Positions 5,743 to 62,043 of a DNA stretch of 64,000 nucleotides are shown here, piece by piece. Source of the DNA: Mytilus galloprovincialis (lineage: Eukaryota; Mollusca; Bivalvia; Mytilida; Mytilidae); contig NC_134846.1 in assembly GCF_965363235.1 (NCBI RefSeq), forward strand, positions 64,655,121-64,719,120, in the 5' to 3' direction. Below the pieces are notes generated by a model. That model saw nothing but the letters and a program-made list of their open reading frames with translations. It was not told the origin of the DNA and did not search any database. Position 1 is the stretch's first letter; every line of letters starts with the position of its first letter. The position numbers and the translations under genes are program-made.

Positions 5743-5744
5743 TA

Positions 5745-29638: not shown

Positions 29639-29643
29639 ATAAT

Positions 29644-30576
29644 AAGATTTATTCCTATGAAGAATAAATCCGGTTATCGGAGGAAAGTGGGCTTACGTTT
29701 TGGGAGTTGTCCCGCTTTGAACACGTGGTGGAACTTGTTATGTATTATGAGTCACGTTAATTATTTTAACCTTGATAACTGTGACGTCATCATTCTTTCT
29801 TTACCACGTACGATACAGCAGAGGGAAGACGCAAAAAATTGGGTTCCGTATGAATTAACTAATGTTTGTTTCAAAAGTTACCCACCCACCCACCACTTAG
29901 ATAAAAGACATACTCCTAAAATGTAGTTAATATACATGTGTTAAATGTTATATTATGTTATATCATGTTGTTCGTTTTTCTGCTGTTTTTGTTCTATTTT
30001 TCAGGTTGAAATGACTGGTAGCTTATTCCGATTGTAATCCCAATCCTTCGTCACGGCTTCAGACAAAGATTCCGACCATTGTAATCCCAATCCTTCGTCA
30101 CGGCTTCAGACAAAGACTCCGACCATTTAATGGCGAAAATAGCGACACAACATCTACAAATATATTATGCTTCTTATAATGGAATTATGTATCCGCTGAG
30201 CTTCTGTTTCCCAGGGCCAGCATCCGATATATTTTGGAAGCAATAATGTTAATAAGGATATTATATTGATATATAAGGAAATGACATTATAAGGAATAAC
30301 AATAAGGTGGAAATAAGGAATAAGAATAATGTGGAAATAAGGAATAAGGAATGGACAATAATGTGGAAATAAGGAATAAGGAATGGACAATAATGTAGAA
30401 ATAAGGAATAAGGAATGGACTATAAGGTTTAATTATATATACTAGGGACTTGCCAATTATGTTTCTCGGCAGTCCCATTCTTTGTCAAGCCGTGGCCGTA
30501 CAATTTTGTACTTTTGCCAAATAAAATATTTCTTACTTTATATATTTGTATGTCATTTGGCCCCACGTTGTCTCAG
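29644..30576. mobile_element. Inserted element E2 (933 bp), internally deleted copy of E1
   Basis: The left 235 bp match 24210-24447 and the right ~450 bp match 29186-29638. The middle 244 bp (29881-30124, with CCCACCCACCCACC and a 52-bp direct duplication at about 30035-30125) replaces 4.7 kb of E1. ATAAT precedes (29639-29643) and follows (30577-30581) it. Confidence 0.85.
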
Positions 30577-34828: not shown

Positions 34829-37800
34829 ATGTCATTTGAAGAATTCATCAAGGGAGCAAGTGATGTCTGTTATCGACCTTTCAATCGGTACTATGTAGAG
34901 GAAGACTGGCCTGCAGAAAATTATTTTTCTAGAATACAGAATTTTTCTGGGAAAGTGAGGAACAAAACGTTCAAATCAAAGTCTACTTCTTATTTTGATG
35001 TATTTCTGAATAACCTGCCGAAACAATTTGAAGATCTTTGTCACGACTTGAGAAATGTTAAACGTGATATTAAAGGTATGAGTTTTGTATAACGTAAAGC
35101 ATACATTATTTGTATTGATAAAATTCAGCTTAAATAATTTAATATCATATTTGAGCTATATTTTCTGTAGCTAGGACTTTTATTTATCAAAATATATAAT
35201 GATTGAATAATAGCCAATGATAAATCTTATGGAACGATAGATCATTTAATTATGATACAGTACACTACAAAATATAATATATTTAAAGTCTAAAAGGGTA
35301 CAACATCACCAAAAAATAATAAAATGAACAAATGTCAAATATTATGGATAACAGATATCCTTCATCTGTATGATTATGATGTAAAATGAATCATATCAAT
35401 CTATTCTAATTTAACTATGACAATTTTGAAATTTATACAATAAAACGTCCCATAACAACATTAATTCAGTTATCATGATAAGTCCCAATGGAAGAATGAA
35501 ATCGATTGAACTGTTTACTTATTTTACTATTTATTTTATCAATATATACATCTGCACAAGTGATGTTTTGTAAGGCTATACATATATATAGACTATATAT
35601 ATATTGACATTTATCACATATTTGTTACGAATACGTCGGGTTTTGCATATGCAATAACCTCAAAATTTACCGGGGTAAAAAAGAGTATATTGATATTGTG
35701 CCCTGATTCTAAACGACGTGACGTCATTGCTTCCTTAACGACACGTTTGTGATAAACTGTTTAAGATTGACCTTTTATCATTCATTAAATTGTTATTATC
35801 ACATATTTGTTACGAATACGTCGGGTTTTGCATATGCAACAACCTCAAAATTTACCGGGGTAAAAAAGAGTATATTGATATTGTGCCCTGATTCTAAACG
35901 ACGTGACGTCATTGCTTCCTTAACGACACGTTTGTGATAAACTGTTTAAGATTGACCTTTTATCATTCATTAAATTGTTATTATCACATATTTGTTACGA
36001 ATACGTTGGGTTTTGCATATGCAATAACCTCAAAATTGCCCGGTGCAAAAAAGACGATATTGATATTGTGCCCTGATTCCAAATGACGTCACGTCATTGC
36101 GTCCTTTAAAACGACACTTTTGTGATACAAAATTTAAAATTTTACCTGTTATGTTTTATCAAATTGTAATAGTTGAACTTTGTGTCTCTATTCTGCAGAA
36201 CTTAGATATGTGATAAATAGATTATAACATGGCCTTTTCCATATTGGCCCTGGTATCATCCCTCGACCCATATCGGACCTCGGCTAATGCCTCGAGGCCG
36301 ATATGGGAGTCTCAGGATGATACCAGGGCCAATATGAAAAGGCCATGTTATAATCTATACTTATCAAACTATTTACATGAAAAATATATTGTTATGATAT
36401 ATTATACGTAGTGATTTTTTTTGTGTTTTTAGAGTCACAGACTTTTGACTTCAATCAATTGTATCGCCATTCAAGAAACATTTATGAATTCTTTATCATT
36501 GAATTTGGATCGGAGTATCGTGTTAAAGCAACCAGAACATTTTATAAAGTCTTAGATGATTCTACTAAAATATCGCCGGTGTATACAAATATAAGCAGTG
36601 GTAGTCAAGGTGAGGGTTTAAATGTTCCTGGTGGTGATTATGACTTAATGACAATTCTGGAGCAAATAAAAGTAAAACACGATAGTTCTACCATTGAGGA
36701 AGACAGTCCCATCCTATTATTTAATAATCAGAATTCATATCCAGGTTTTGCACACCTAAAAATAGGGCAAAACCGATTTTCGAAGGAACTATTTGCTTCA
36801 TGGGGAGAAAATACATTTTATGGACCTCTTATTTCAAACAATAGATTTAAGAATTATTTTGTATTGCGATATCGAGATAATGACTGTATGCTTCATGGTC
36901 CATGTATTTCCGACTCACGGGGTGCGGTTGATCATTTATTTTGCTTCCGTGCTATGTTATGGCCAGATGTTGCAGAGTCTTGGTTGATAAGAAATAGATC
37001 ATCAATGTGGCCACCAGCTGATGTTATATTGAACTCTGTCAGCCAAGGAATCTTGCTAGTACCGCTTGGCAGCAAATTCGGCTCAACTGAGGATTGTTCT
37101 TTCGAATGGCGAATATCATTCTCATTACAAGAAAGAGATCTGATTCATTCATTTAACTATGTACAGGTATTATGCTACAAAATATGTAAACACTTGAAAA
37201 AAGATTTTATAAGTGAGTCACGATTGTGCTCTTACTTTATCAAGACGGCTATATTTTGGTTAAGTGAAGAGTTGGGTAACAATTTCTGGATACCGGAAAA
37301 TTTCGTACTGTGCATTCATGAAATACAGCGTCGTCTAACGTATTGGTTTGTGTACGGATATTGTCCTCATTACTTTATAGTTGAAAACAATCTATTCGAG
37401 GGACTGCTTCCTGTAGAAAGAAAACTCGTAGAAGTTGCATTGCATACTAGTAACCTTTTTCCATTGGTATTGCAAAGCATTTTCTACCAAAAACCTAAGT
37501 TACGCTTCACAGCTCTAAATGATTTTAAAGAAATAAACACACCGTTTATTGAAAGAAGTAAATCTATTTTCATATTACTTAAAGTGGTCCGAGCAAGTTT
37601 GTCTTGGTGTACTTTGAAGCAGAGTAGAAGTATAGTGCACAAAGCTTTATTCAGACTTTTACATAATAAACCTTCATATTTTACTAAAGATTTATATAGA
37701 CTATTCTTTTGCTATGCAAACCAAGTTTTACCACAAAATCAACGCATTTCTTTTCATAAAGAAAACAAAAGGATGTACTCCAGTTACAAGCAATGTATGG

Positions 37801-38387
37801 CTCATTTTCTTATTGGAACCAAAGTTGACGCCATGAATGGCTGGTTATTGCTAGCTTCATACTTTTATAAAATGGACAAGCCTTTATACACCCTCAAGAT
37901 TACAGAAATTATTCTTGCGGAACCTAGAGAAGATAAAATGTTAATTGCTGATGGTTTTCACGAAGGCGTTATGCTGAAATATTTAGAACAAGTGGCTGCC
38001 AAAAAGTGGGATCAAAAGTTGTCATTCATGACCTGCATGAAAATTCACTGTGTTGACATGCTTTATATAATACCATGGTCAATACTGAATCTTGAAGATA
38101 TATTACCAGATTTTTATTTTATAGTTTGCACTATTCCGCCAGTTATATATGCACATCTTCTACGCTTTGTGTGTTATAATGCTGATGGCAACATCTCTCT
38201 ACGAGAAAGAGAAATAAGTGACATAATTAAAACGTGCTGCAATAATTGTTTTCTTGGAGATTGGAAGGGGAGAGCTACTGTATATGCAATGCTAGCAAAT
38301 CTTTATAAATCAATAAACAAAGATCGATCTGCGGATTATTGGAAATCGCATTTCCTCAGATTCTATAGGAAACACCCTAAATTCTAG
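34829..38387 (+). CDS. Mab-21-domain protein (gene B), two coding exons, 733 aa
   Basis: Exon 1 is 34829-35075 (82 codons + 1 base). The intron, 35076-36432, has donor AAAG|GTATGAG and acceptor TTTTTAG|AG. Exon 2 is 36433-38387, ending in TAG. The junction restores a Glu codon (phase 1). The ATG follows TTTCAG directly, so a 5' noncoding exon is likely. Residues ~84-370 form a Mab-21 nucleotidyltransferase-like fold: GS at 139-140, GGDYDLM with Asp151/Asp153, VDH with Asp249 as a candidate third acid, and SFEWRISFSLQERDLIHSF at 305-323, a family hallmark. Active cGLRs usually have E-x-D where B has D-Y-D, so catalysis is possible but uncertain. The C-terminal ~360 residues look helical and TPR-like (DAMNGWLLLASYFY; TVYAMLANLYKS). 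Cytosolic; no signal peptide or membrane segment seen. Gene A is a close paralogue. Confidence 0.85.
35617..36165 (+). repeat. 185-bp tandem repeat in gene B intron, about 3 copies
   Basis: ATTTGTTACGAATACG starts at 35620, 35805 and 35990 (period 185). Copies 1 and 2 are almost identical; copy 3 is diverged and partial. Each copy carries the palindromic octamer TGACGTCA (35719-35726, 35904-35911, 36084-36091), a CRE/ATF-type site. Confidence 0.92.
36218..36357. mobile_element. 140-bp palindromic MITE in gene B intron
   Basis: TAGATTATAACATGGCCTTT and following bases to GGTATCATCC are matched in reverse complement at the right end; the arms are about 45 bp, with further pairing around CCCATATCGG/CCGATATGGG towards the centre. 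It ends 75 bp before the exon 2 acceptor, so it is transcribed in the pre-mRNA as a strong hairpin. The ORF at 36229-36411 is the hairpin translated. Confidence 0.88.
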
Positions 38388-43028: not shown

Positions 43029-43149
43029 ATGTCAACACCGCATTTATACCTCGTAGTAATCATCATTGGAGCTCGTGCTAAATCAGTTCGAATGACGGAT
43101 ACATTTATTGTAAAATAACATTTCTATGATATGTTATACATGTTTTTGT

Positions 43150-44445
43150 ATGTTTTTAAAGTCACAAAATATTGACCGCACTCAATTCTATCGTTATTGA
43201 ATGGAAATTTATCGATTACTTTACACGATATTTGGATCGGAGAATCGTGTAAAAGCAACAAGAAAGCTTTATAAAGTCTAAGATGATTGTACGAAAATAT
43301 CATATGTGTATATCAATATTAGCAGTAGTGGTCAAGGTGAAGGTTCAAATATCCCAATGGAGACTATGACTTGATTACAATTCTGGAGCAAATAAAAGTT
43401 AAAAAAAACGATAGTTCTGTTATTGAGGAAGACCGTCCAATCATAGTCTTTGAAAGTCGGCAATCATACCCAGGTTTTGCACATCTAAGAATAAGACAAA
43501 ACCGATTTTCGAAGGAACTATTTACTTCTTGGGAAGAAAATACATGTTAGGGACCTCTTATTTCAACCAACAGATTTAAGAATTATTTTCTGTCACGATA
43601 TCGTGATAGTGACTGTTTGCTTCATTGTCCATGTTTTTTCTGACTCACGTGGAAAGGTTGACCATCTTATTTGCCTCCGAGCTAAGTTATGGGCAGATGT
43701 TGCAGACTTGAGGTTGATGAGAAATAGATCATCAATATGGCTACCAACTAATGTTATATTGAATTCTGTCAGCCAAGGAATCCTGCTAGTACCGATTGGC
43801 AGAAAATTCGGCTCATTTGAAGATTGTTCTTTCGTATGGCGAGTATCATTCTTATTACAAGAAAAAGATCTGATTCATTCATTAAACTCTGTACAACTAG
43901 TGTTCCTCATAGTGTTAAAGTACTTCAAAACAGACGGGTTTTTTTAAAAAAGCATAATATGTTCGTATTTGTTAACGACTACCTTATTTTGGTAACGTGA
44001 AGAGTAAGATAACAGTAGTTCCGACAATATTGTACTGTGCCTTCATGAAATTCATAGACGACTATCATAACGAGGGGTAAGATACGAGTAATGTCCCAAT
44101 TACGTTATAGAAGGATACAATCTATTCGATGATGTTCTAACTGACGGAAGGAAAATCATATTACAAACATTATTGCATAACTTAGTTCCATTATTATGCA
44201 AAATATTAACTATGGAAGTGTGTGTTCGTATTTCAACTTCATAGATTTTAACTATTTTAAAGAATTAAACACCCCGTCTATTGAGAAAAGTAAATCTATT
44301 TTTCATATTACTGAAAATAATTCGGAGGAGTTTGTTCATGTGTATTTTTCTCAGATTAGAGTTATATTGCAAAAGACTTTATTCAGACTATTACCATGAA
44401 GACGTTGTGATCAAATATTTCGAACTAGTAGCCAGCACTTAAATC
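43150..44445 (+). pseudogene. A-type Mab-21 pseudogene
   Basis: Aligns with gene B exon 2 from its first bases (TTTTAAAG|TCACA, and ~50 bp of intron sequence before it) through the Mab-21 fold to the helical C-terminal region, then jumps about 310 bases ahead and stops near the segment equivalent to 460-500 of gene A. Lesions include a stop in 'AAAGTCTAAGATG' (43276-43288), a frame loss at ATCCCAATGGAGAC, a stop at ACATGTTAGGG and later frame shifts. The longest intact stretch is 43603-43947 (114 codons). In the stretch shared by all three (44260-44400) it is closer to gene A than to gene B. Retention of intron sequence argues for DNA duplication, not retrocopying. Confidence 0.88.
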
Positions 44446-44657: not shown

Positions 44658-46166
44658 TTAGTTGCTTGACGTAATAGTATATATTTCTTCCGAAACCAAA
44701 TTACCAAGTTTGACATCAAATAATTCCTGTAAACGTTTGAAATAACGAGTAAAATGTGTATTCATTTCAGTTTCTGATATGCTTGTTGGCATTTTGCAGT
44801 CTTTTGAATCTGTCGGCATTTGAATAAAGTTAGTATGCTTACAATAGCATTCAATTAGGAGCATCATTGATTCTTTCATCATATAAAACTGTTCTTGGAT
44901 GGCCTGATCGTCATGGGTCTTTACCTCTCGAAGTAGACTCTGTACTTTAAGAACAACCCTGCACCATAACTCAAGCCAACAGACAGCATACCATTCAATG
45001 CCTAGTGTCCCTTCATCCAGAAAGGTATTTGGGTACCTACCGGATCTAGTTGCTAATGCTGGAAACTTTAAAACTGGACCCCATGTATCAATGTTTCTAG
45101 ACAAAAAGCAAGGCATTTTGCCTTGCCTGAAATTGTATGCTATATAATCTAGCACTGCATAAATACATGATTGTTCGTCTTTTGAACAATTTGTTTTACC
45201 ATAAACATGAAACATAAAAGCATTTTTTAACATGTATGATGATAAATTTGCACATTTTCCTGGAAACGCAACCTCCCTTATCATAAGGTACTTCAAAACT
45301 TGATAGCATTTTTTATGTTTTGCATCCATTTCCCTCATTAGACTTGATTCAGAGGTAGCTAGGGACACATGCCAACAGGTGGAGCATGGATTTAATGACT
45401 GGCAACTTTTGGCAACCAATTGACATCCTTTTTCTCTAATAAGATCACTCCATTCTGAAGGAAAACCTTCTTGCGAAAAGACATCTGCGATGTTTGGATA
45501 ATCTATCGCAATCATTAGATCTACTCCTATTTCCATGTAAGGTAAATGAACTAGTTCTTTGCTATCGGAAACTTGATTTTCATCGTAGTTCACTTCCAGT
45601 GTTTCCACTCTTTCATGCTTTATGTATTCTAACAGTAGTTTACGAGATTTGCATCCTTTTGTTCTTATTGTCCCATACTTAAACGTTTCGGAAATGACTT
45701 CATTTTGACATTGAACCAATAAACTTCCCCAAAATTTTCTGGTCAATAGTTCATTGCTTAATTTGTCCTCTGACTCCAAATAGTCTTTGTACTTATCTGC
45801 ATCGCTTGTGATGTGTATTTTCTTGTACCATGGTGTACATCCTTCCTCCAATTTGACTGCTCCTGGTAAAGATAAAAGTTGGACGATAACCATGTAATCA
45901 AATTCATCAGGGGCTCCAACTTTTGTTTGCTCATAGAAACTTCCACCACTTACGGTTTTGGAAATCTCAAGAACAGGTGTCTTCTTTGCAACTCGAGCCA
46001 AAACTTTATCCACTATACTTTGAACAGTTTTTTCTATCTCATTTACAACTTCTGAATGTTCGTCAAATTTACAATGCCTTCTGTAGATATACTTAAGAAA
46101 AGCTTTTTCCATTTCGTCTGAAAATTTAAAAGACATATCTATGAAGGAATCTTTATGAAAAATCAT
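44658..46166 (-). CDS. cGAS-like receptor, Mab-21-domain nucleotidyltransferase (gene C), 502 aa
   Basis: A single uninterrupted minus-strand frame. Residues ~65-230 hold the catalytic core: GGSFYEQTKV (74-83) with the GS motif, DEFDYM with Glu88/Asp90, and GVDLMIAID with Asp216 as third metal ligand. This is the complete GS...E-x-D...D set of active cGAS-like enzymes. Residues ~230-330 carry the Mab-21 C-lobe (WHVSLATSE; CYQVLKYLMIRE; LSSYMLKNAFMF). The last ~170 residues are helical and unrecognised. No obvious vertebrate-cGAS-type H-CC-C zinc ribbon was seen. A second ATG at codon 11 lies just after TTCCTTCATAG|AT, a possible splice acceptor, so translation may start there (492 aa) from a spliced transcript, as in genes B and D. 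Expected role: cytosolic sensor making a cyclic-nucleotide second messenger; ligand unknown. Faces the A-type pseudogene, with ends about 210 bp apart. Confidence 0.9.
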   Translation of the reverse strand: MIFHKDSFIDMSFKFSDEMEKAFLKYIYRRHCKFDEHSEVVNEIEKTVQSIVDKVLARVAKKTPVLEISKTVSGGSFYEQTKVGAPDEFDYMVIVQLLSLPGAVKLEEGCTPWYKKIHITSDADKYKDYLESEDKLSNELLTRKFWGSLLVQCQNEVISETFKYGTIRTKGCKSRKLLLEYIKHERVETLEVNYDENQVSDSKELVHLPYMEIGVDLMIAIDYPNIADVFSQEGFPSEWSDLIREKGCQLVAKSCQSLNPCSTCWHVSLATSESSLMREMDAKHKKCYQVLKYLMIREVAFPGKCANLSSYMLKNAFMFHVYGKTNCSKDEQSCIYAVLDYIAYNFRQGKMPCFLSRNIDTWGPVLKFPALATRSGRYPNTFLDEGTLGIEWYAVCWLELWCRVVLKVQSLLREVKTHDDQAIQEQFYMMKESMMLLIECYCKHTNFIQMPTDSKDCKMPTSISETEMNTHFTRYFKRLQELFDVKLGNLVSEEIYTITSSN

Positions 46167-47285
46167 ATTTTTCTATGCATGGGTATGTGTATGTTTATGC
46201 ATGTTATAGATTTAGTACATTCCTTAGTTGACCGATACAATTAGCCAACCAAAGTACTCTTTGAGATGTTAAATACATTTATTATTCTCTATTGAAAATT
46301 CTACATACATTAATCATTGAACGTTTATCATTGACTGATACAGACTACAAATCAAGCTGACACTACTTCAGTTAATGTATATCACTCTTTTTATAAAATA
46401 CCTAGAAAGGTCTTAAAATACATTTATACCATATATTGATAACTATATCAATAAATCACAAACTATTCAAGTGTCTACTTGAAGAATTGAACATACATGT
46501 ATATGGAAAATTGCAAGGATATGTAATGATCGACAATCAATAATTTAAAAAAAAACTGTTAGTGTAGTTCATTCATATATACCATGTCCTACTTTGTCGT
46601 ATATGCATATACATATAATGCTTCTTTTAAAGTTAAATGATGTAATAATGATATATGGATCTGTATTCACTATTTTTAAAGGTCACATATCTTACCTTTG
46701 AAGGAAAAAACAGCCCAATGTTGAAAGGTCTCAAACAAAAGGCGTAAACGTGTCTAATCACGTATTGTATTATACTTTTTGAGAAATTATGAATGGTTTT
46801 AAGTTCATACTTTTTATCAATCTCCCCCTACCCCGTCTTTTCCTCGTTAGGACTGGAAGAGGGCTCTACTAATCATTTGCTTCATACGATATATTTTTTT
46901 AATAGAAATAGATATTATACTATATAATAACCCAAAAAAACGGAGGTTATTATAAAAAGTTAACACTAGAAGTACAAAATAGTGAAATTATAGATTAAAA
47001 ATTGTGTTTTTCATTAAATAGTCTGTTATTCTGTTAAAAAATAGTGCCAATTAACTTAGAATATGAGAGAAATTGAAAAATCAACTTACAGGAAGGAGAT
47101 GTTAGATGAATACGCTATCGATATTTATGGCATGTTAAAAAACTTCCGGGTACAACACATAATTAAAATGCACACTTGATAGAATTTTGTATTGAATTAA
47201 CTTCAGTTATATAATCCAAAATTGATGGGTTTTTTTTATTCATCATATATTGTGTCGCGACAAAATGTATTTTAAAATAAAAAAT
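46167..47285. other. Upstream region of gene C
   Basis: AT-rich with no gene recognised. Any promoter or 5' exon of gene C would lie here on the minus strand. Confidence 0.4.
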
Positions 47286-48147: not shown

Positions 48148-48572
48148 TATGGTGGCCGGATGTACCAGTTTCGCCTTTTCACGTTTTCGCGTTTCAAGTC
48201 TCCTTTCACTTTCACTCGAAATCAGGAAATCGAGAAAGAGAGAAATTGAGAAATCGAGAAATAGAGAAATAGAGAAAGCGAGAAAGCGAGAAATAGGAAA
48301 ATCGGGAAAACGAGAAATCGAGAAATCAAGAAAGCTAAAACGCGAAAACGCGAAGACAAATAAACGAAAACGGACAAAAGATTTCTAAATTTCGCGTTTT
48401 CGCTTTCCGTATTTCTTGATTTCCAGATTTTCCGATTTCTCGATTTCTCAATTTCTCGATTTCTCAATTTCTCAATTTCTTGATTTCCCGATTTCTCGAT
48501 TTCGCAATTTCACGTTTGCAAAGTGAAAGGAGAAAACTCGAAAAGGTGAAATGACTGCATCTGGTCACCATA
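48148..48572. mobile_element. Mini-foldback element (425 bp)
   Basis: Ends TATGGTGGCCGGATG (48148-48162) and CATCTGGTCACCATA (48558-48572) are inverted copies, followed inward by inverted CCTTTTCACG/AAAAGGTG and TCCTTTCACTTTC/GTGAAAGGA blocks. The left arm interior is a GAGAAATCGA-type tandem array; the right arm is its complement, TTTCTCGATTTCTCAA. The whole folds into one long hairpin. The only possible target duplication is TA, which is ambiguous. ORFs on both strands (48131-48388, 48222-48467) are translated repeat. Confidence 0.85.
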
Positions 48573-49188: not shown

Positions 49189-49197
49189 GTAGTTGAC
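49189..49197 (+). repeat. Target site duplication, left (GTAGTTGAC)
   Basis: Perfect 9-bp match to 62035-62043. A 7-bp duplication (TAGTTGA) with one more C in the terminal repeat is an equally valid reading, because the flanking base is C on both sides. Confidence 0.85.
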
Positions 49198-52100
49198 ACC
49201 AGACACAAGTTGGTTCCTTTTTCCTTTTTCCTTTTTCGATATTCAAATTTTGAAAAATATTACAAGTCCAAACTGAATTTTTTTTTTCTTAAAATTTTTT
49301 TTTCCTCAAAATTTTTTTTTCCTCAAAATTTTTTTTCCTCAAATTTTTTTTTTTCCTCAAAATTTTTTTTTCCTCAAAATTTTTTTTCCTCAAATTTTTT
49401 TTTTCCTCAATTTTTTTTCCTTCAAAAATTTTTTCCTCAATATTTTTCCTCAAAAAGTTTTTCTTCAAATTTTTTTTTCGTTTCCTTATTCGTTTTCCTT
49501 TTCATTTTTTGATTATCGTCCTTATTCGATTTCCATTTCCTTATTCGATTTTCATTTCCTTATTGGGTTTCTTCTTCCTTTTTCAATATTCATTTCCTTT
49601 TTTGATTTCTATTTCCTTATTCGGTTTCTATTTCCTTATTGAATTTTCATTTCCTTATTCGATTTCCATTTCCTTATTCGATTTTCATTTCCTTTTTTGG
49701 TTTCTATTTCCTTATTCGGTTTCTATTTCCTTATTCGGTTTCTATTTCCTTATTCGGTTTCTATTTCCTAATTGGATTTTTGTTTCCTTATTCGATTTCC
49801 ATTTCCTTATTCGATTTTCATTTCCTAATTCGGTTTTTTTTTCCTTTTTCAATATTCATTTCCTTATTCGGTTTCTATTTCCTTATTCAGTTTCTATTTC
49901 CTTATTGGATTTTCATTTCCTTATTCGGTTTCCATTTCCTTTTTCGGTATTCAAATTTTGAAAAATATTACAAGTCCAAACTGAATTTTTTTTTTCCTTC
50001 AAAATTTTTTTTCCTCAAAATTTTTTTTTCAACTAAATTTTTTTTCCTCAAATTTTTTTTTTCCTCAAAATTTTTTTTTCCTCAAATTTTGTTTTTCCTC
50101 AAATTTTTTTATTCCTCAATTTTTTTTCCTCAAAATTTTTTTTCCTCACAATATTTTTCCTGAAAGAGTTTTTCTTCAAATATTTTTTTCGTTTCCTTAT
50201 TCGTTTTTTTTTCCTTTTTTGATTATCATCCTTATTCGATTTCCATTTCCTTATTCGATTTTCATTTCCTTATTCGGTTTTTTCTTCCTTTTTCAATATT
50301 CATTTCCTTTTTCAATATTCATTTCCTTTTTCGATTTCTATTTCCTTTTTCGGTTTCTATTTCCTTATTGGATATTCATTTCCTTATTCGATTTCCATTT
50401 CCTTATTCGATTTTCATTTCCTTATTCGGTTTCTTTTTCCTTTTTCAATATTCATTTCCTTTTTCGGTTTCTATTTCCTTATTCAGTTTCTATTTCCTTA
50501 TTCGGTTTCTATTTCCTAATTGGATTTTTGTTTCCTTATTCGATTTCCATTTCCTTATTCGATTTTCATTTCCTAATTCGGTTTCTTTTTCCTTTTTCAA
50601 TATTCATTTCCTTATTCGGTTTCTATTTCCTTATTCAGTTTCTATTTCCTTATTGGATTTTCATTTCCTTATTCGGTTTCCATTTCCTTTTTCGGTATTC
50701 AAATTTTGAAAAATATTATGAGTCCAAACTGAATTTTTTTTTTCCTTCAAAATTTTTTTTCCTTCAAAATTTTTTTTTCCTCAAAATTTTTTTTCCTCAA
50801 ATTTTTTTTTTCCTCAAAATTTGTTTTTCCTCAAATTTTTTTTTTTCCTCAAAATTTTTTTTTCCTCACAATTTTTTTTTCCTCAAATTTTTTTATTCCT
50901 CAATTTTTTTTCCTCAATATTTTTTTTCCTCAATATTTTTCCTGAAAGTTTTTCTTCAAATATTTTTTTCGTTTCCTTATTCATTTTTTTTTCCTTTTTT
51001 GATTATCATCCTTATTCGATTTCCATTTCCTTATTCGATTTTCATTTCCTTATTCAGTTTTTTCTTCCTTTTTCAATATTCATTTCCTTTTTCGATTTCT
51101 TTTTCCTTTTTCGGTTTCTATTTCCTTATTGGATATTCATTTCCTTATTCGATTTCCATTTCCTTATTCGATTTTCATTTCCTAATTCGGTTTCTTTTTC
51201 CTTTTTCAATATTCATTTCCTTATTCGGTTTCTATTTCCTTATTCAGTTTCTATTTCCTTATTGGATTTTCATTTCCTTATTCGGTTTCCATTTCCTTTT
51301 TCGGTATTCAAATTTTGAAAAATATTATAAGTCCAAACTGAATTTTTTTTTTCCTTCAAAATTTTTTTTCCTCAAAATTTTTTTTTCCCCAAAATTTGTT
51401 TTCCTCAAATTTTTTTTCCCTCAAAATTTGTTTTTCCGCAAATTTTTTTTTTCCCTCAAAATTTTTTTTCCTCACAATTTTTTTTCCTCAAATTTTTTTA
51501 TTCCTCAATTTTTTTTCCTCAAAATTTTTTTTCCTCACAATATTTTTCCTGAAAGAGTTTTTCTTCAAATATTTTTTTCGTTTCCTTATTCGTTTTTTTT
51601 TCCTTTTTTGATTATCATCCTTATTCGATTTCAATTTCCTTATTCGATTTTCATTTCCTTATTCAGTTTTTTCTTCCTTTTTCAATATTCATTTCCTTTT
51701 TCGATTTCTATTTCCTTTTTCGGTTTCTATTTCCTTATTGGATATTCATTTCCTTATTCGATTTCCATTTCCTTATTCGATTTTCATTTCCTAATTCGGT
51801 TTCTTTTTCCTTTTTCAATATTCATTTCCTTATTCGGTTTCTTTATAGTATAACTAATCGCCGTATTTGAATATCAAAAATAAGACAACGCGTGACCGAA
51901 CGACGCATGGATTAAACGAGTGCGCAGCAAATGGCTTTTTTTTTTATGAAATTAAGAAAATGTAAGGAACTATATCTTTTTCCTACGCATTGACAATTTG
52001 TTTTGATCCGACGTTATCGACGTCTTGACAACGCCTATTGTTGTATGACGTCAGAGAGTGAAATAACCACGTTTATTTCACATGTGAAATTATCGGTTTT

Positions 52101-53890
52101 TATCTAACTGAGAAATCAATGTAATTCATTGCAACCAATGTAATAAATTTCCTTATTCAGTTTCTATTTCCTTATTGGATTTTCATTTCCTTATTCGGTT
52201 TCCATTTCCTTTTTAGGTATTCAAATTTTGAAAAATATTATAAGTCCAAACTGAATTTTTTTTTTCCTTCAAAATTTTTTTTCCAAAAATTTTTTTTTTC
52301 CTTCAAAATTTATTTTCCAAAAATTTTTTTTTTCCTCAAAATTTTTTTTCCTCAAATTTTTTTTCCCTCAAAATTTGTTTTTCCGCAAATTTTTTTTTTC
52401 CCTCAAAATTTTTTTTTCCTCAATTTTTTTTCCTCAAATTTTTTTATTCCTCAATTTTTTTTCCTCAAAATTTTTTTTCCTCAATATTTTTCCTGAAAGA
52501 GTTTTTCTTCAAATATTTTTTTCGTTTCCTTATTCGTTTTTTTTTCCTTTTTTGATTATCATCCTTATTCGATTTCAATTTCCTTATTCGATTTTCATTT
52601 CCTTATTCAGTTTTTTCTTCCTTTTTCAATATTCATTTCCTTTTTCGATTTCTATTTCCTTTTTCGGTTTCTATTTCCTTATTGGATATTCATTTCCTTA
52701 TTCAATTTCCATTTCCTTATTCGATTTTCATTTCCTTATTCGGTTTCTTTTTCCTTTTTCAATATTCATTTCCTTTTTCGGTTTCTATTTCCTTTTTCGG
52801 TTTCTATTTACTTATTGGATTTTCATTTCCTTATTCAATTTTCATTTCCTTATTCGATTTCTATTTCCTTATTCGGTTTCTTTTTCCTTTTTCAATATTC
52901 ATTTCCTTATTCGGTTTCTATTTCCTTATTCGGTTTCTATTTCCTTATTGGATTTTCGTTTCCTTATTCGATTTCCAGTTCCTTATTCGATTTTCATTTA
53001 CTAATTCGGTTTCTTTTTCCTTTTTCAATATTCATTTTCTTTTTCGGTTTCTATTTCCTTATTGGATTTTCATTTCCTTATTCAATTTCCATTTCCTTAT
53101 TTGATTTGTACTTCCTTATTCGGTTTCTTTTTCCTTTTTAATATTCATTTCCTTTTTCGGTTTCTATTTCCTTATTCGGTTTCTATTTCCTTATTGGATT
53201 TTCATTTCCTTATTCGATTTCCATTTCCTTATTCGATTTTCATTTCCTTATTCGTTTTTTTTTCCTTTTTCAATATTCATTTACTTTTTCGGTTTCTATT
53301 TCCTTATTCGGTTTCTATTTCCTTATTGGATTTTCATTTCCTTATTGGATTTTCGTTTCCTTATTCGATTTCCATTTCCTTATTCGATTTTCATTTCCTA
53401 ATTCGGTTTCTTTTTCCTTTTTCAATATTCATTTCCTTTTTCGGTTTCTATTTCCTTTTTCGGTTTCTATTTCCTTATTGGATTTTCATTTCCTTATTCA
53501 ATTTTCATTTCCTTATTCGATTTCTATTTCCTTATTCGGTTTCTTTTTCCTTTTTCAATATTCATTTCCTTTTTCGGTTTCTATTTCCTTATTCGGTTTC
53601 TATTTCCTTATTGGATTTTCGTTTCCTTATTCGATTTCCATTTCCTTATTCGATTTTCATTTCCTTATTCGGTTTCTTTTTCTTTTTTTCAATATTCATT
53701 TCCTTTTTCGGTTTCTATTTCCTTATTCAGTTTCTATTTCCTTATTGGATTTTCATTTCCTTATTCGATTTTCATTTCCTTATTCGGTTTCTTTTTTCTT
53801 TTCCAATATTCATTTCCTTTTTCGGTTTCTATTTCCTTTTTCGATTTTCATTTCCTTGTTCGGTTTCCATTTCCTTTTTTCGATATTCAA
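49198..53890 (+). repeat. Left arm of foldback, tandem pyrimidine repeats
   Basis: Higher-order units consist of three blocks: (1) TTCAAATTTTGAAAAATATT then ACAAGTCCAAACTGAA; (2) a TTTTTTTTCCTCAAAA array; (3) an array of ~18-bp TTTCCTTATTCGRTTTCYA units. Block 1 occurs near 49240, 49950, 50698, 51305 and 52219, with a partial copy at 53883. Long ORFs in all + frames (up to 544 codons, rich in Phe, Ile, Ser and Leu) are this array translated. Confidence 0.92.
51850..52150 (+). repeat. Internal module in left arm
   Basis: Non-satellite sequence from ATAGTATAACTAATCGCCG to CAACCAATGTAATAA interrupts the array. It contains the palindrome ATTTCACATGTGAAAT and TGACGTCA (52046-52053). An inverted relative is at 58970-59370. 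Confidence 0.88.
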
Positions 53891-53896
53891 ATTTTG

Positions 53897-54310
53897 AATG
53901 TGTTCTCCACATGAGACCAAATGACACAGAAATAAACAACTATAATAGATCACCGTGCGGCCTTCAACATTGAACAAAGCCCATCCCGCATAGTCCGCTT
54001 TAAAAATCTCCGAAATGTCAAGTGCTAACAAATTTCAAACAAGAAAACTGACGGCCTAATTTATGTACAAAATATGAACGAAAAACAAATATGTAACACA
54101 GCAACAAACGAGAACCACTGAATTAATTTACAGTTTCCTGACTTGGGATAGGCACATATACATACATAATGTGGCGGCGTTAAACATGTAACTTTGACAG
54201 TGGTGTAACAGTACAGCATAAGAGCGAACTATAAAAATCAGTTGAAAAAGACTTAAGCCTGACTTAACTCAGATCATGAGATACAAATAGAAATACACCT
54301 TGCTAAAACA
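53897..54310 (+). repeat. Mussel dispersed repeat in foldback loop
   Basis: 'CTCCACATGAGACCAAATGA', 'AATATGAACGAAAAACAAAT', 'CCTGACTTGGGATAGGCACA' and 'GTGGTGTAACAGTACAGCAT' are blocks I recognise as a very common mussel repeat. It begins right at the inner end of the left arm. Confidence 0.8.
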
Positions 54311-54594
54311 CAGAGTGTACGTGGCCTGGTACATATCTGAGAGTTTTTCCAGTTATTAACAGCTAGTTCAAAGCCAAAAACAAATAATAAACGAAATCAT
54401 GCATCCCAGACTAAATAATTAATCTTCATAGAATTAAAAAGACTACAATAATTATTAATTAAATTGTACTGACATTGTATTCTTTAAATATCTTATAAAC
54501 GATCTTTTAATTGAAGCTTTCCTTCCACTTTTATTGGTAAAATATCGCATACGTGTGTATTACGATTTATTTTGAAAATGCTGAAAATATATTG

Positions 54595-55035
54595 ATTGAT
54601 TGATTGTTGGTTTCTCAACGTTCAGTGGCAAATATTTCATGAATATTCAGGACGAGAACAATTTAACAATAAATACAATAGGTAGGTCTCGTAATAATTG
54701 AGGCCATCCGGGATGATGATCAGGGAAATTTTGACTGCCACAGGAAGATGAGGGTATATTGGATAGGTACATGAATTTTGCCTTGCATCAGGTAACCTAC
54801 GAATTCTCAAAGAGTTGTTGTAAGGGTTCTTAACGTACAAAGAGCATGACTTTCTCTTAACACGAGGCATCGGACTTAACTTCCCCATTCTGACCGGACA
54901 TGACTACATACTTGATACATCCCAAACAGCCAAACGGAAGCCCGAGTTTGGCAAGCATTTTACTGCCGGTCGAGAGAAGACCAAGTGGCCATATTTCTAT
55001 TCCCCAGTCACCCCTGGGGTCAGCAAATATTTGAA
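54595..55035 (-). repeat. Bivalve repeat with ATTG tail, reverse orientation
   Basis: On the minus strand it runs from 'TTTGCTGACCCCAGGGGTGA' to 'GCCACTGAACGTTGAGAAAC' and CAATCAATCAAT. It is GC-richer than its surroundings. Two overlapping minus ORFs (54637-54888, 54857-55057) show no known domain. The simple-repeat tail suggests a SINE- or LINE-like retroposon end. Confidence 0.65.
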
Positions 55036-55785
55036 AAGTAGACACAATGAACTTCAATTTTTAAATAACTTACAATATTAAATTAAATAAAAAAAGAATT
55101 GGAAGAATTGATACTCATAATGTAGTTAAAAGTTTGTTGATTACTGCTGCGGTATATGATTAATAGACATGCTATTACAGGTCTATATGGTTGAATATTT
55201 CTATCTTAAATATGTATTTGTTTCTAATAAAATGCATAGTTTCAGCTTTCGCGTATGCAGTACGCATATGTTGTACTATGTTGAAGATGAAACTCACAAT
55301 TGGTTAATTTAATAGACCTTCACAGGCCTTGTTTCACAGTTGTAATACAACAACTAGAAGTTTTTAACGACCTTGACTGGCTATTAAAACATCCAATTGT
55401 TGTATTAGTAATTGTGAATTTAAAACATCTTCACAGTCTTTGTTACACATTTGTATTAAAAAAGGTTTTGTATTTATGTTTATCATAATATACATTTTCA
55501 ATAAGGCCAATTTTATATGTTAAAATAGCTCTTATTCTATCATGGTTTTGAAAGCCTACCCCAAAAAATTGCCAACTTATTCAATTTAAACTGCTGTATC
55601 TGTATAACAGGCGATTATTTGAAAAAAATATGAAAATATTTTATTTTTAGCTTGTTTATGTCTGTGCAATTTCAAGGGAAATAAATCTTAATCACAAACC
55701 GTTCGTTGCAACGGTTACTACTTGCAACGGTTGTTTGAAAGCATAATCGAGTACACACCATGTCGTTTGTTATGAACGTTGCGAA
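55036..55785. other. Foldback loop, nothing recognised
   Basis: AT-rich. The small palindromic segment GCAACGG...CTTGCAACGGTTG is near 55710-55733. No gene. Confidence 0.4.
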
Positions 55786-55789
55786 ATAT

Positions 55790-56790
55790 ATTGATTATAT
55801 ACCTTTTGTTCCTCTCTTAATACGCTTTCGAATGAGGTATACAGTTTATCTGTAAATACGGGCTGAAGGGTCACAGCAGTCCATTCAAATATTCAAAATA
55901 TCCATTTCATTATTCAAAATTGGCTATTTCCTAATTTTCACGCGTGTTTTGGCATTAAGGTCCTCCGTAACCCCTCTAATGGTCATTGCCGCACATATTG
56001 TTTATTATCAGTGTATTTCTCTATCAATCAGCTTTTTATTGGTGTATAATTTTTATCGTAATTAGGAGCTGACGGGTTGCAGCAGTCCGTTTCATTATAC
56101 AAAATAAGCTATTTCTCAATGTTCACGCGTATTTCGATATTAAGTCCGGCGGAACTCCTCTAATATGCGTTGCGGAAAATATTGACTATATACCTTTTGC
56201 TCCTCTCTTAATAATCTTTTGAATGATCAGATATAAGGTTTATCTGTAATAACGGGTTGAGGGGGTACAGCAGTCCATTGAAATATTCAAAATGTCCATT
56301 TCATTATTCAAAATTGGCTATTTCCTAATTTTCACGCGTGTTTTGTCATTTAGGTCCTCCATAACCCCTCTAACGGTCATTGCGGCACATATTGTTTATT
56401 CTCAGTGTATTCCTCTATCAATAAGCTTTAAATTGGTGTATATTTTTTTCCGCAATAAGAGCTGACGGGTTGCAGCAGTCCGTTCCATTATTCAAAATAA
56501 GCTATTTCTCAATGTTCACGCGTATTTCGATATTAAGTCCGTCGGTACTCCTCTTATATGCGTTGCGGAACATATTGACTATATACCTTTTGCTCCTCTC
56601 TTAATAAGCTTACGAATGAGTTATGAGGTTTATCTATTATTCGGGGCTGAAGGGTAACAGCAGTCCATTCAATTATACAAAATATCCATTTCATTATTCA
56701 AAATTGGCTATTCCTTAATTTTCACGCGTGTTTTGTCATTTAGTTCCTCCGTAACCCCTCTAATGGTCATTGCTGCACAATCAACTTGTT
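55790..56790 (+). repeat. ~391-bp tandem repeat in foldback loop, about 2.5 copies
   Basis: ATACCTTTTG(T/C)TCCTCTCTTA recurs near 55799, 56190 and 56583. Each unit is a dimer of related halves (GGGCTGAAGGGTCACAGCAG versus GAGCTGACGGGTTGCAGCAG; TTTTCACGCGTGTTTTG versus TGTTCACGCGTATTTCG), so the ancestral period is about 195 bp. Confidence 0.88.
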
Positions 56791-58360
56791 ATATCTTTAA
56801 TCAGAGGATGAAGAATAGCAAAGGGCCAGAGAAAATAAAAAAGGACAACGTAGAGTATTTTAATTTTGATATATATATATATATATGTTTTGGTATTCAG
56901 GTTGTCCATACATGGAATTTTTTTTTTAAATAGTTAAGAAAAGCCATAAGTTTATATCCTCCGAAACTAAATAAATAAATGAAATTAAAGATTTACAGAT
57001 TGTTTTTTTATAATAATTTGAATGATCGTTTGATAACACTAAAATGACGAATTTAAAAATACGGAATTTAGCTACAGTGTCAGTTATTTTTATTTCACTA
57101 TTCACCGCTCCAACTTGAATAATGAAACCTAAACTATTTCATCATTCATTACTTAACATTGAATAGTGAACTAGTTCATTATTCATTATTGAATTTTGAA
57201 TAATGAATAATGAATAATGGACGTACTTCAGCGCGGTAAAAATGAGAAGTATGATGGATTTTTTTTCTGTGCCCGGTAAAAAGACCACCTACATAATGTA
57301 GTGTTCTAGTACTTCCCAGATCTATGGACAAACCGACAGGCAGGACGGAACACTCTTAGTTAATCATATGTACATACCACCTAAAACTTCATTTTTGAGG
57401 GATTATATATAAACATACAACCTATAGTAACTTACCCTGTATTTCACTTTAAATGTGTCTCGTTTTATACTAATGTATAGCTGAAATAGTCGGGCAATCC
57501 ATGACAGATTTTGCCAAGTAGCCTTTGCCAGCTGTTCATATTAAATTGTTCATATTGCCTCGCATATGTGTGTCTTCTATGCCACATACAACTGTGACGA
57601 TATTGACTTTAGCAAACAATTCTGCTCAAACCGGTGCTAGGGACTGTCTTTCAACTTTCATTGAAACGAGAATGATTTCTCTGTTTAAAAGATCTCGATG
57701 TATTTGTCAACAGAACAGCAATAAAGACGCTGTTTCTTTACTGCAAATGTATTGTGTATATGTCTTGATTTTGATGTCGGGCAAACTTATGAAAGAAAAC
57801 GGAAACACAAAAATCAGTATTTTTTTTTTAATTTGTTAAGGCGCATAACCCTAGAATGGTATAAATGACGTCACCAAAATTCAAATGTGATCTGTATTTT
57901 GTTGTAATACGGATTGTGTATAAGTTTCTTAACATTTTGTTGAGGCAAACTCAAGAACGGAAACTAATTTCTTGACGTACGGACATACACACAGACAAAG
58001 CTGGAAAAACTTAATGCCCCCTCCACTATAAGTCATATTTCATTGAATAACCCGATGTTTTCATCACTTAGTAACGATAATTGCTATCTATATCCTATTC
58101 TTTTTTATTTATATAAAGTTCCGGAAAACATTTCCCTAACCGATATTAATCAGAGTCTTTTAAATAACTAGAAGGAATTCCGATCTATATATAGAAAATT
58201 ATTGACCTGGCTACTGAGGTTGTCATTTGTCGCTTCTGTAAAAGGAGTAAAAAACGGGGCATGTAATATCAAAATCGGGAATACGCTGGCATTTCATAAT
58301 CTATCATGTATTGTTACGTAGGGACATTTGTTCTTACGAAACAGCTTATAAATGCACATC
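56791..58360. other. Foldback loop, nothing coding recognised
   Basis: 57125-57235 is an ATTATTCAAT/GAATAATGAA low-complexity palindromic tract. The 104-codon ORF at 57525-57839 has no recognisable motif, and no transposase signature was found in any frame. Confidence 0.4.
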
Positions 58361-58365
58361 TTATA

Positions 58366-58489
58366 CAGGGACAGATCCAGCCATTTTAAAAAGGGGGCGG
58401 GTTCCAACTATATGTCCCTATTCAAATGCATTGATCGGCCGAAAAAGGGAGGTTCCAGCCCCCGGAACCCCCTTCTGGATCCGCCACTG
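58366..58489. mobile_element. Short TIR MITE, hAT-like ends
   Basis: Ends CAGGGACAGATCCAGCC and CTGGATCCGCCACTG are inverted, resembling the widespread CAGTGGCGGATCCAG MITE family. The interior has AAAAAGGGGGCGGGTTCC and GGTTCCAGCCCCCGGAACC. The flanks TTATA/TTACA may be a decayed duplication; a clear 8-bp hAT duplication is not seen. Confidence 0.7.
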
Positions 58490-58594
58490 TTACAACATTT
58501 TGAAGTCTCATATAGACTTTCCAGTTCGTTTTTCATTGTATACTAGAAAGATCTCATTTTTGTCTGAATTGGTGAATCCTTTTTTAACGATAAA

Positions 58595-61500
58595 GAGTAA
58601 TAAGGAAATGAAAATTTAATAAGGAAATAGAAACTGAATAAAGAAATAGAAACCCAATAAGGAAATGGAAATCTAATATTATAACAATGAAATAAAAACC
58701 CAATAAGGAAATGGAAATCTAATATTATAACAATGAAATAAAAACCCAATAAGGAAATAGAAACCGAAAAAGGAATGAAAATCGAATAAGGAAAAAGTTA
58801 CCGAATAAGGAAATGAAAATTGAATTAGGAAATAGAAACCGAATAAGGAAATGAAAATTGAATAAAGAAATAGACACCAAATAAGGAAATAGAAACCGAA
58901 TAAGTAAAAAGTTACCGAATAAGAAAATGAAAATCGAATAAGGAAAAAGAAACCGAATAAGGAATGTTATTACATTGGTTGCAATGAATAACATTGATTT
59001 CCCAGTTAAATAAAAACCGATAATTTCACATGTGAAATAAACGTGGTTATTTCACTCTCTGACGTCATACAATAATAGGCGTTGTCAAGACGTCGATAAC
59101 GTCGGATCAAAACAAATTGTGAATGCGTAGGAAAAACATATTGTTCTTTACATTTCTAACATTAATTTCTTTTAAAAAAGCCATTAGCCAATGTAATAAA
59201 AAGTATAACTATTAATCACCGTATTTGAATATCAAAAATAAGACAACTTGTGACCGAACGCCGCTATGGATTAAACTCATGCTGCGCACTCGTTTAATCC
59301 ATGCGTCGTTCGGTCACGCGTTGTCTTATTTTTGATATACAAATACGGCGATTCGTTATACTATAAATAATCAAAAAAGGAAAAAGAAAACGAATAAGGA
59401 AACGAAAAAACCTTTTTGAGGAAAAAAAAAATTTGAGGAAAAAAAATTTTGAGGAAAAAAAAATTTTGGAAAAAAAATTTGAGGAAAAAAAAAATTTGAG
59501 GAAAAAAAAAAATCAGTTTGGACTTGTAATATTTTTCAAAATTTGAATATCGAAAAAGGAAATGGAAACTGAATAAGGAAATGAAAATCGAAAAAGGAAA
59601 TAGAAACCGAAAAAGGAAATGAATATTGGAAAAGGAAAAAGAAACCGAATAAGGAAATGAAAATCGAATAAGGAAATGAAAATCCTTTAAGGAAATAGAA
59701 ACTGAATAAGGAAATAGAAACCGAATAAGGAAATAGAAACCGAAAAAGGAAATGAATATTGAAAAAGGAAAAAGAAACCGAATTAGGAAATGAAAATCGA
59801 ATAAGGAAATGGAAATCGAATAAGGAAACGAAAATCATAGAAGGAAATAGAAACCGAATAAGGAAATAGAAACCGAAAAAGGAAATGAATATTGAAAAAG
59901 GAAAAAGAAACTGAATAAGGAAAAGCAAACCATTTAAGGAAATGGAAATTGAATAAGGAAATGAAAATCCAATAAGGAAATAGAAACCGAATAAGGAAAT
60001 AGAAACACAAAAAAGGAAATAGAAACATAAAAAAGGAAATGAATATTGAAAAAGGAAAAAGAAATTGAATTAGGAAATAGAAACCGAATAAGGAAATAGA
60101 AACCAAATAAGGAAATAGAAACCGAATAAGGAAATAGTAACCGAAAAAGGAAATGAATATTGAAAAAGGAAAAAGAAACCGAATAAGGAAATGAAATTCG
60201 AATAAGGAAATGGAAATTGAATAAGGAAATGAAAATCCAATAAGGAAATAGAAACTGAAAAGGAAATAGAAACCGAAAAAAGGAAATGAATATTGAAAAA
60301 GGAAAAAGAAACCGAATAAGGAAATGAAAATCTAATAAGGAAATAGAAACTGAAAAGGAAATGAATATTGGAAAAGGAAAAAGAAACCGAATAAGGAAAT
60401 GAAAATCAAATAAGGAAATGGAAATCGAATAAGGAAATGAAAATCCAATAAGGAAATAGAAACCGAATCAGGAAATAGAAACCGAAAAAGGAAATGAATA
60501 TTGAAAAAGGAAAAAGAAACCGAATAAGGAAATAAAATTCGAATAAGGAAATGAAAATCCAATAAGGAAATAGAAACCGAATAAGGAAATAGAAACCGAA
60601 AAAAGGAAATGAATATTGAAAAAGGAAAAAGAAACTGAATAAGGAAATGAAAATCGAATAAGGAAAAAGAAACCGAATAAGGAATGATAATCGAAAAAGG
60701 AAAAAGAAAACGAATAAGGAAAAGAAAAAAAATTTTGAAGAAAAACTTTTTGAGGAAAAAGAAAATTTGAGGAAAAAAAAATTTGAGGAAAAAAAATTTG
60801 AGGAAAAAAAAAAATTTGAGGAAAAAAAATTTTGAGGGAAAAAAAATTTTGAGGAAAAAAAAAATTTGAGGAAAAAAAATTTTGAGGAAAAAAATATTTG
60901 AGGAAAAAAATTTTTAGGAAAAAAAAATTTGAGGAAAAAAAATTTTGAAGTAAAAAAAAAATTCAATTTGGACTTGTAATATTTTTCAAAATTTGAATAT
61001 CGAAAAAGGAAATGGAAACCGAATAAGGAAATAGAAACCAAATAAGGAAATAGAAACCGAAAAAGGAAATGAATATTGAAAAAGGAAAAAGAAACCGAAT
61101 TAGGAAATGAAAATCGAATAAGGAAATGGAAATCGAATAAGGAAACGAAAATCCAATTAGGAAATAGAAACGGAATAAGGAAATAGAAACTGAAAAAGGA
61201 AATGAATATTGAAAAAGGAAAAAGAAACTGAATAAGGAAATGAAAATCGAATAAGGAAATGGAAATCGAATAAGGAAATGAAAATCCAATAAGGAAATAG
61301 AAACTGAATAAGGAAATAGAAACCGAATAAGGATATGAATATTGAAAAAGGAAAAAGAAACCAAATTAGGAAATGAAAATCGAATAAGGAAACGAAAATC
61401 CAATTAGGAAATAGAAACCGAATAAGGAAATAGAAACCGAATAAGGAAATAGAAACCGACAAAAGGAAATGAATAATGAAAAAGGAAAAAGAAACCGAAT

Positions 61501-62034
61501 AAGGAAATGAAAATCGAATAAGGAAATGGAAATCCAATAAGGAAATGAAAATCCAATAAGGAAATAGAAACCGAATAAGGAAATAGAAACTGAAAAAGGA
61601 AATGAATATTGAAAAAGGAAGAAGAAACCGAATAAGGAAATGAAAATCGAATAAGGAAATGAAAATCGAATAAGGAAATAGAAATCGAATAAGGATGATA
61701 ATCGAAAAAGAAAAAAGAAAACGAATAAGGAAATGAAAAAAAATTTGAAGAAAAACTTTTTGAGGAAAAATATTTTGAGGAAAAAAAAAATTTGAGGAAA
61801 AAAATTTTTGATGAAAAACAAATTGAGGAAAAAAAATTTTGAGAAAAAAAAAAAATTTGAGGAAAAAAAATTTTGAGGAAAAAAAAAAAATTTGAGGAAA
61901 AAAATTTTAAGGAAAAAAAATTTTGAGGAAAAAAAAATTTGAAGGAAAAAAAAATTCAGTTTGGACTTGTAATATTTTTCAAAATTTGAATATCGAAAAA
62001 GGAAAAAGGAAAAAGGAACCAACTTGTGTCTGGT
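58595..62034 (-). repeat. Right arm of foldback, tandem purine repeats
   Basis: Reverse complement of the left-arm arrays: GGAAATAGAAACCGAATAA-type units, AATTTTGAGGAAAAAAAA arrays, and the conserved block TTTTTCAAAATTTGAATATC near 59532, 60978 and 61977. It is shorter than the left arm (3.4 versus 4.7 kb). Minus-strand ORFs (58543-62073) are the array translated. Confidence 0.92.
58970..59370 (-). repeat. Internal module in right arm, with long palindrome
   Basis: The inverted relative of 51850-52150, from TTACATTGGTTGCAATGAAT to GTTATACTATAAATAA. It contains a full palindrome (59206-59365) whose arms run from AGTATAAC through AAAAATAAGACAAC and GACCGAACG to TGGATTAAAC. The left-arm module keeps only half of this palindrome. 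TGACGTCA at 59060-59067. Confidence 0.88.
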
Positions 62035-62043
62035 GTAGTTGAC
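62035..62043 (+). repeat. Target site duplication, right (GTAGTTGAC)
   Basis: Perfect match to 49189-49197. Joining the flanks gives CTTGTAGTTGACAAG, an inverted-repeat target. Confidence 0.85.

What the first reader, a model, noticed from the sequence alone, without database searches (positions are those of the whole stretch)
49189..62043. A 12.8-kb foldback transposon with satellite arms and an intact target duplication
Seen: identical inverted tips (ACCAGACACAAGTTGG...), arms of 4.7 and 3.4 kb that are inverted tandem arrays, a 4.7-kb loop and perfect 9-bp flanking repeats GTAGTTGAC. Known: Drosophila FB elements have long inverted repeats made of short tandem repeats and make 9-bp duplications; Galileo (P superfamily) is similar with 7 bp. 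Inference: a large, fairly recent bivalve foldback family, possibly undescribed. The complete tips and duplication show it moved as a unit rather than arising in place as satellite.
Basis: partly seen in the sequence, partly recalled or inferred. Interest (0 to 1): 0.9.

Follow-up and report, generated by a model that had tools for sequence, protein, structure and literature searches.

The report
Large foldback transposon with satellite arms
This is a 12.8-kb jumping-DNA element, probably from a bivalve, whose two inward-facing arms are built from repeated satellite modules; it looks like a new member of a known kind (foldback elements) that cannot move without a partner's enzyme.

Summary
A 12,837-bp element (49198-62034) has inverted tips identical over 89 bp and flanks repeating GTAGTTGAC perfectly. 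The target duplication is ambiguous: 7, 9 and 11 bp all fit with symmetric tips. Composition disfavours 7, so a P/Galileo reading is weaker than a Mutator/FB-like one. The arms are trains of modules, not plain arrays: five plus a cut-off sixth on the left, three on the right. A module is a 62-bp head, a 16-17-bp array and a 19-bp array. All nine heads hold the palindrome TTCAAATTTTGAA, found nowhere else in the window. Left modules 2-5 are 96.4-98.5% identical to one another but 87.3-92.7% to right modules, so the arms changed independently; such unequal arms argue against an assembly mirror. The 4.7-kb loop gave no Pfam match at the curated cut-off in 22 of 26 listed ORFs (the other four lie wholly or mostly in the arms). 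Best reading: a non-autonomous foldback element, probably moved by a Mutator-type transposase acting in trans. No second copy could be sought: the search of the window's own genome was unanswered in 15 of 15 tries. Family status, superfamily and host are inferred.

The parts
49189..49197 (.). left target-site duplication GTAGTTGAC (could also be 7 or 11 bp)
49198..49286 (+). left terminal tip, 89 bp identical to the right tip; its outer 29 bp do not recur whole inside the arms
49198..53898 (+). left arm: modules starting 49227, 49935, 50683, 51292, 52205 and a cut-off sixth head at 53870
51842..52147 (+). non-satellite insert inside left module 4 (limits read by eye); related to the right-arm insert, 91% and 93% in two stretches
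53899..58597 (.). loop, about 4.7 kb; no Pfam match at the curated cut-off
55770..56798 (.). another tandem repeat inside the loop (shift about 392 bp at 88-89% identity, about 200 bp at 63-64%)
58598..62034 (-). right arm: modules starting (reading inward) 62005, 61012, 59562
58966..59367 (-). right-arm copy of the non-satellite insert (limits read by eye), with an extra inverted segment that makes a hairpin
61946..62034 (-). right terminal tip, 89 bp
62035..62043 (.). right target-site duplication GTAGTTGAC
49242..49254 (+). 13-bp palindrome TTCAAATTTTGAA; also at 49950, 50698, 51307, 52220, 53886, 59535, 60985, 61978: one per module head, none elsewhere in the window

Best explanation
A non-autonomous foldback DNA transposon that was inserted here as one unit by cut-and-paste. 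A transposase made elsewhere, most likely of the Mutator (MULE) superfamily, recognises the 89-bp tips and possibly the repeated module heads with their 13-bp palindrome, and inserts the element with a staggered cut of 9 (or 11) bp. The arms lengthen, shorten and homogenise independently by unequal exchange, slippage or conversion among modules. The loop is host-like DNA lying between the arms. Shown: tips, flank duplication, module anatomy, independent change of the two arms. Inferred: the transposase, its superfamily, the role of the heads, the origin of the loop.
For: Tips and duplication. Tips are 89/89 identical although the first modules of the two arms are 90.9% identical; 0 differences in 89 has probability 3e-4 at 8.7% divergence and 4e-6 at 13%. 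Heads more alike than junctions in the same seven modules: mean 96.0% against 91.8% over the first 72 junction columns, 21 pairs each; across arms 95.7% (15 pairs) against 90.4% (10 pairs). Palindrome in 9 of 9 heads, none elsewhere, shuffle mean 0.10. Left modules 2-5 group together, 96.4-98.5% identical (6 pairs), ultrafast bootstrap 87 or 90. No transposase domain in 22 of 26 listed ORFs. [quoted passage not shown] MULE duplications are given as 8-11 bp (PMC6446971, passage).
Against: Only one copy was seen, so mobility rests on one insertion. No transposase. Duplication length not fixed. No published tip or transposase sequence was compared. Head similarity may be homogenisation and not function; the nine palindromes come from copying of modules, so the shuffle control overstates them, and as only 5 of 50 head columns vary an invariant run of 13 is not remarkable (about 0.2 by my arithmetic). 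Bootstraps of 87-90 are moderate, and the tree sets left modules 2-5 nearer right module 1 than left module 1, weakly (71 or 50).
Confidence: 0.75

Rival explanations
1. The same kind of foldback element, but mobilised by a P-superfamily transposase, as Galileo is, with a 7-bp duplication TAGTTGA and tips CACCAG.
For: 7 bp fits with symmetric tips. Galileo has TIRs up to 4.2 and 4.7 kb with tandem repeats, and mostly 7-bp duplications (passages).
Against: Four extra flanking bases would have to match by chance; posterior 0.02-0.06 under three priors of mine. TAGTTGA does not fit the Galileo consensus GTANTAC or GTATTAC.
Confidence: 0.08
2. Two satellite arrays that became inverted in place (local inversion or break repair), with no transposition.
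For: The arms are mostly tandem repeats, and other inverted structures occur in this window.
Against: Identical unique tips at both outer ends and a perfect flanking repeat, together improbable by chance.
Confidence: 0.05
3. Assembly artefact: one array mirrored or wrongly joined.
For: Reads were not available.
Against: Arms differ in length (4.7 and 3.4 kb), module number (5 and 3), sequence (L-R module pairs 87.3-92.7%) and internal insert; a mirror artefact would give near-identical arms.
Confidence: 0.04
4. A foldback element of another superfamily with duplications near 8-9 bp, such as Merlin, or of an undescribed one.
For: No transposase seen, and duplication length alone does not assign a superfamily. 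An ORF-based survey found at least one element of every superfamily it sought in bivalves (PMC10294476, passage).
Against: Most foldback elements are said to belong to Mutator. In the mollusc survey MULE is among the commoner DNA transposons; Merlin is rare, and almost restricted to cephalopods in its automatic library.
Confidence: 0.08

Closest known systems
Drosophila FB (foldback) elements
   Same: FB4 TIRs are called repetitive, with frequent rearrangements (PMC8277862, passages).
   Different: Repeat units and module layout; no FB sequence was compared.
Tm1, Mutator/foldback family of root-knot nematodes (PMC3169594, passages)
   Same: Composite TIRs with tandem repeats; 45 of 53 complete elements with 8-10-bp duplications, most often 9; non-autonomous forms.
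   Different: The two sizes seen are 1,080 and 2,593 bp; units 13-15 bp; terminal motifs CGGTTAA and CCTACCC, while the tip here is ACCAGAC.
Tetris of Drosophila virilis (PMC4079207, passages)
   Same: Non-autonomous foldback, tandem repeats inside TIRs, no conserved ORF, 8-10-bp duplications.
   Different: Tetris repeats are about 220 bp; here two short satellites alternate in modules.
Rehavkus-1_TC (PMC10218199 and PMC6446971, passages)
   Same: [quoted passage not shown] group duplications 9 bp.
   Different: 164-bp unit; the group is defined by a PHD-finger transposase, absent here.
Galileo copy 112 of D. willistoni (PMC4168063, passages)
   Same: 9,021 bp, no transposase segment, TIRs of 4,246 and 4,680 bp with unequal tandem arrays and an inserted element, identical duplications.
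   Different: P superfamily; species consensus duplication GTATTAC, 7 bp (that of copy 112 itself not seen).
MULEs with multiple tandem TIRs in plants (PMC3310237, passages)
   Same: Terminal units repeated in tandem.
   Different: Whole TIRs, two or three; here internal modules lack the outer tip.
Muta1 of Aedes aegypti (PMC5225508, passages)
   Same: Classed by its authors as a type 2 foldback; subterminal tandem repeats and 8- or 9-bp duplications, with many non-autonomous derivatives.
   Different: TIRs of 145 bp with 12-bp repeats; 3,198-bp element that encodes its transposase.

Membership tests
Foldback elements (structural class) | Long inverted arms with internal tandem repeats | tested here: met
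Foldback elements (structural class) | Target-site duplication flanking matched tips | tested here: met
Foldback elements (structural class) | Dispersed copies with different loops | not tested
   The genome search unanswered in 15 of 15 tries; the other collections scanned hold viral or prokaryotic sequence
Mutator (MULE) superfamily | Duplication of 8-11 bp | tested here: inconclusive
   9 or 11 bp fit; 7 also fits but is disfavoured
Mutator (MULE) superfamily | MULE-type transposase | not testable with these tools
   none in the ORFs scanned; an autonomous partner could not be searched for
Drosophila FB family | Sequence similarity to FB tips and repeats | not tested
   no FB sequence was at hand
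Galileo (P superfamily) | 7-bp duplication with consensus GTANTAC | tested here: not met
   the 7-bp reading is TAGTTGA
Galileo (P superfamily) | P-type transposase with THAP domain | not testable with these tools
   no coding region in this copy
Tm1 | Terminal motifs CGGTTAA and CCTACCC | tested here: not met
   both tips read ACCAGACACAAG
Rehavkus | PHD-finger transposase | not testable with these tools
   no coding region in this copy; the 9-bp duplication of the group is possible here

The most novel reading that the evidence does not exclude
A foldback family with an 11-bp duplication whose module heads, each with the 13-bp palindrome, act as an array of transposase-binding enhancers. The element would gain mobility by multiplying internal half-ends, and so would make two-part satellites as a by-product of selection on transposition.
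Probability: 0.12. Interest if true: 0.65.

Novelty: new member of a known kind. Interest (0 to 1): 0.4.

Why it matters
It is a complete foldback element, dissected to its module unit, in a probable mollusc. It shows how such arms change: four modules of one arm are nearly alike while the other arm differs and the tips stay identical. That bears on how transposons seed satellite DNA. The repeated head with its palindrome is a concrete binding-site candidate to test.

Tried and rejected
Other copies. A 15-base piece of the tip had 36 matches in viral contigs; none of the 36 agrees with the tip for more than two further bases, so I take them as chance. Core, array and insert patterns gave 0 in viral contigs; core and array patterns gave 0 in genome contigs. 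Those collections are viral and prokaryotic, so the zeros say little. A translated stretch of the left arm gave no protein hit among the 8,000 candidates scored. Rfam at gathering threshold: 0.

The related insert in both arms was considered as proof that one arm was copied from the other. Not accepted: the 5' junctions differ, and independent insertions of one repeat family are possible.

Similarity of the arms to arrays at 29.3-29.5 and 30.3-30.4 kb (64-67%, E 1.7e-6 to 6e-4) I judge to be composition; a distant kinship is not excluded. The palindrome at 48.1 kb was examined as a relative; its tips and unit differ.

One loop ORF (56658-56933) has a sub-threshold Pfam match, TMEM127, 18.2 bits against a cut-off of 25.3; not taken as a gene.

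Rows dropped. The cut-off sixth left head was left out of head and module comparisons; R3 was left out of the junction comparison (its motif is missing) and of the tree, and shortened to 215 bp in the matrix. The full junction alignment (187 columns, mean 91.3%) includes array units where R1 is out of register; one search repeats it on shorter spans. The 26 ORFs are those of at least 50 aa; the 4 not scanned lie wholly or mostly in the arms.

Papers. Nine searches. Fifteen papers were opened, each for passages only. Of the 10 papers that hold 'foldback', 'transposon' and 'bivalve', 5 were opened and 5 seen only in the listing (PMC12628747, PMC12692304, PMC5139131, PMC10048060, PMC5615363). The tip string is in 0 held papers. 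Repbase and subscription journals were not searched. FB repeat anatomy is recalled.
Full report
Observation. The element lies at 49198-62034 (12,837 bp). GTAGTTGAC flanks it at 49189-49197 and 62035-62043 and occurs nowhere else in the window on either strand. The two outer ends are identical over 89 bp; bases 2-20 of the tip have only these two matches even at three mismatches. Random background 9-mers agree in 38 of 2,000,000 pairs. The arms are 4,695 and 3,437 bp and the loop 4,705 bp if the left arm is ended at 53892; the cut-off head carries it to 53898.

Duplication length. Three symmetric readings fit: 7 bp TAGTTGA, 9 bp GTAGTTGAC, 11 bp TGTAGTTGACA. A composition-only likelihood gives 0.003, 0.032 and 0.079. 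Under three sets of priors of my own the 7-bp reading gets 0.02-0.06, the 9-bp 0.28-0.73 and the 11-bp 0.26-0.69. So 7 is disfavoured, and 9 and 11 cannot be told apart without a second copy. MULE duplications are given as 8-11 bp (PMC6446971, passage).

Arms. Each arm is a train of modules. Left modules start at 49227, 49935, 50683, 51292 and 52205, with a sixth head cut off at the loop (53870). Right modules, reading inward, start at 62005, 61012 and 59562. A module has a 62-bp head, an array of 16-17-bp units (TTTTTTTTCCTCAAAA), a junction, and an array of 19-bp units (TTTCCTTATTCGATTTCTA) that also shows a 133-bp period of seven units, about as strong as 19. The full outer tip is found only at the two ends. 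TTCAAATTTTGAA occurs nine times in the window, once in each head and nowhere else. Two cautions: the heads are copies of one another, so the shuffle control (mean 0.10) overstates the case; and 5 of the first 50 head columns vary, so 13 unchanged columns could well be chance.

How the arms changed. Over about 560 bp, left modules 2-5 are 96.4-98.5% identical to one another, 91.8-93.1% to left module 1 and 87.3-92.7% to right modules (R3 compared over 215 bp only). In a tree of seven modules they group together with ultrafast bootstrap 87 (all columns) or 90 (441 gap-free columns), which is moderate; the same tree sets them nearer right module 1 than left module 1, with weak support, 71 or 50. 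I read this as multiplication or homogenisation inside the left arm after the arms had parted. The first modules of the two arms are 90.9% identical but the tips 100%. In the same seven modules heads average 96.0% and the first 72 junction columns 91.8% (21 pairs each); across arms 95.7% (15 pairs) and 90.4% (10 pairs). Constraint on tips and heads, or local gene conversion, would explain this; I favour constraint, as inference. The unequal arms speak against a mirrored assembly.

Inserts and loop. Each arm carries a related non-satellite insert (about 51842-52147 and 58966-59367; 215 of 235 and 98 of 105 positions identical in two stretches), the right one with an extra inverted segment. The junctions differ, so shared ancestry is not shown. 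Of 26 ORFs of at least 50 aa listed for the loop and its edges, 22 were scanned: none reached a Pfam cut-off, one had a sub-threshold TMEM127 match. The loop holds a tandem repeat at 55770-56798 and three short matches (68-86%) to other places in the window. It reads as host-like DNA.

Age. No difference in 98 aligned pairs bounds divergence since insertion at 3% (95%). This fits a recent insertion but does not date it, and exchange between tips could lower it.

Mechanism and kinship. [quoted passage not shown] Tm1 and Muta1 join tandem-repeat TIRs, duplications of 8-10 bp and a Mutator assignment. In Galileo the transposase's THAP domain binds near the end and at two sites in the TIR tandem repeats (PMC3688188, passages). 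By analogy the heads may be secondary binding sites. Galileo itself is disfavoured by duplication length and consensus. Architecture and size are matched by Galileo copy 112 and Rehavkus-1_TC, so this is a new member of a known kind. In nine searches of the held papers I saw no bivalve foldback of this design. In three oyster satellite papers 'foldback' appears only in connection with Tetris (passages), and in a mollusc transposon survey not at all; five listed papers that hold the words were not opened.

Host. An ORF (44658-46172, minus strand) has a Mab-21 domain and 17 protein relatives, the best an unnamed 99% hit; the four with names are Mytilus edulis, M. trossulus (two) and Magallana gigas at 31-34%. 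A bivalve is likely, Mytilus unproven.

Limits. The decisive test, other genomic copies, was not possible: the genome search was unanswered in 15 of 15 tries.

Noticed in passing
48148-48572: A separate small palindromic element 0.6 kb upstream: arms of 8-bp repeats (GAAATCGA-like), ends TATGGTGGCC / TATGGTGACC, no duplication of 6 bp or more found within 40 bp of its ends.
   Followed up: partly
20810-24447 and 29193-32732: Rearranged segments 99.1-99.8% identical between the two regions, with a 593-bp (99.3%) and a 451-bp (100%) direct repeat inside: a recent duplication or mobile element.
   Followed up: partly
19448-20423 and 26080-28388: Tandem arrays of 54-bp and 67/134-bp units.
   Followed up: no
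36381-38387 and 44658-46172: Two ORFs with Mab-21 domains; stretches of the first recur at 43103-43895 (83%) and 17-801 (76%), suggesting a local gene cluster.
   Followed up: partly
3677-3822, 5466-5744, 6435-6702, 12286-12871, 36203-36375: Other palindromic, MITE-like stretches without convincing duplications.
   Followed up: partly
56658-56933: Loop ORF with a weak, sub-threshold Pfam match to TMEM127.
   Followed up: no
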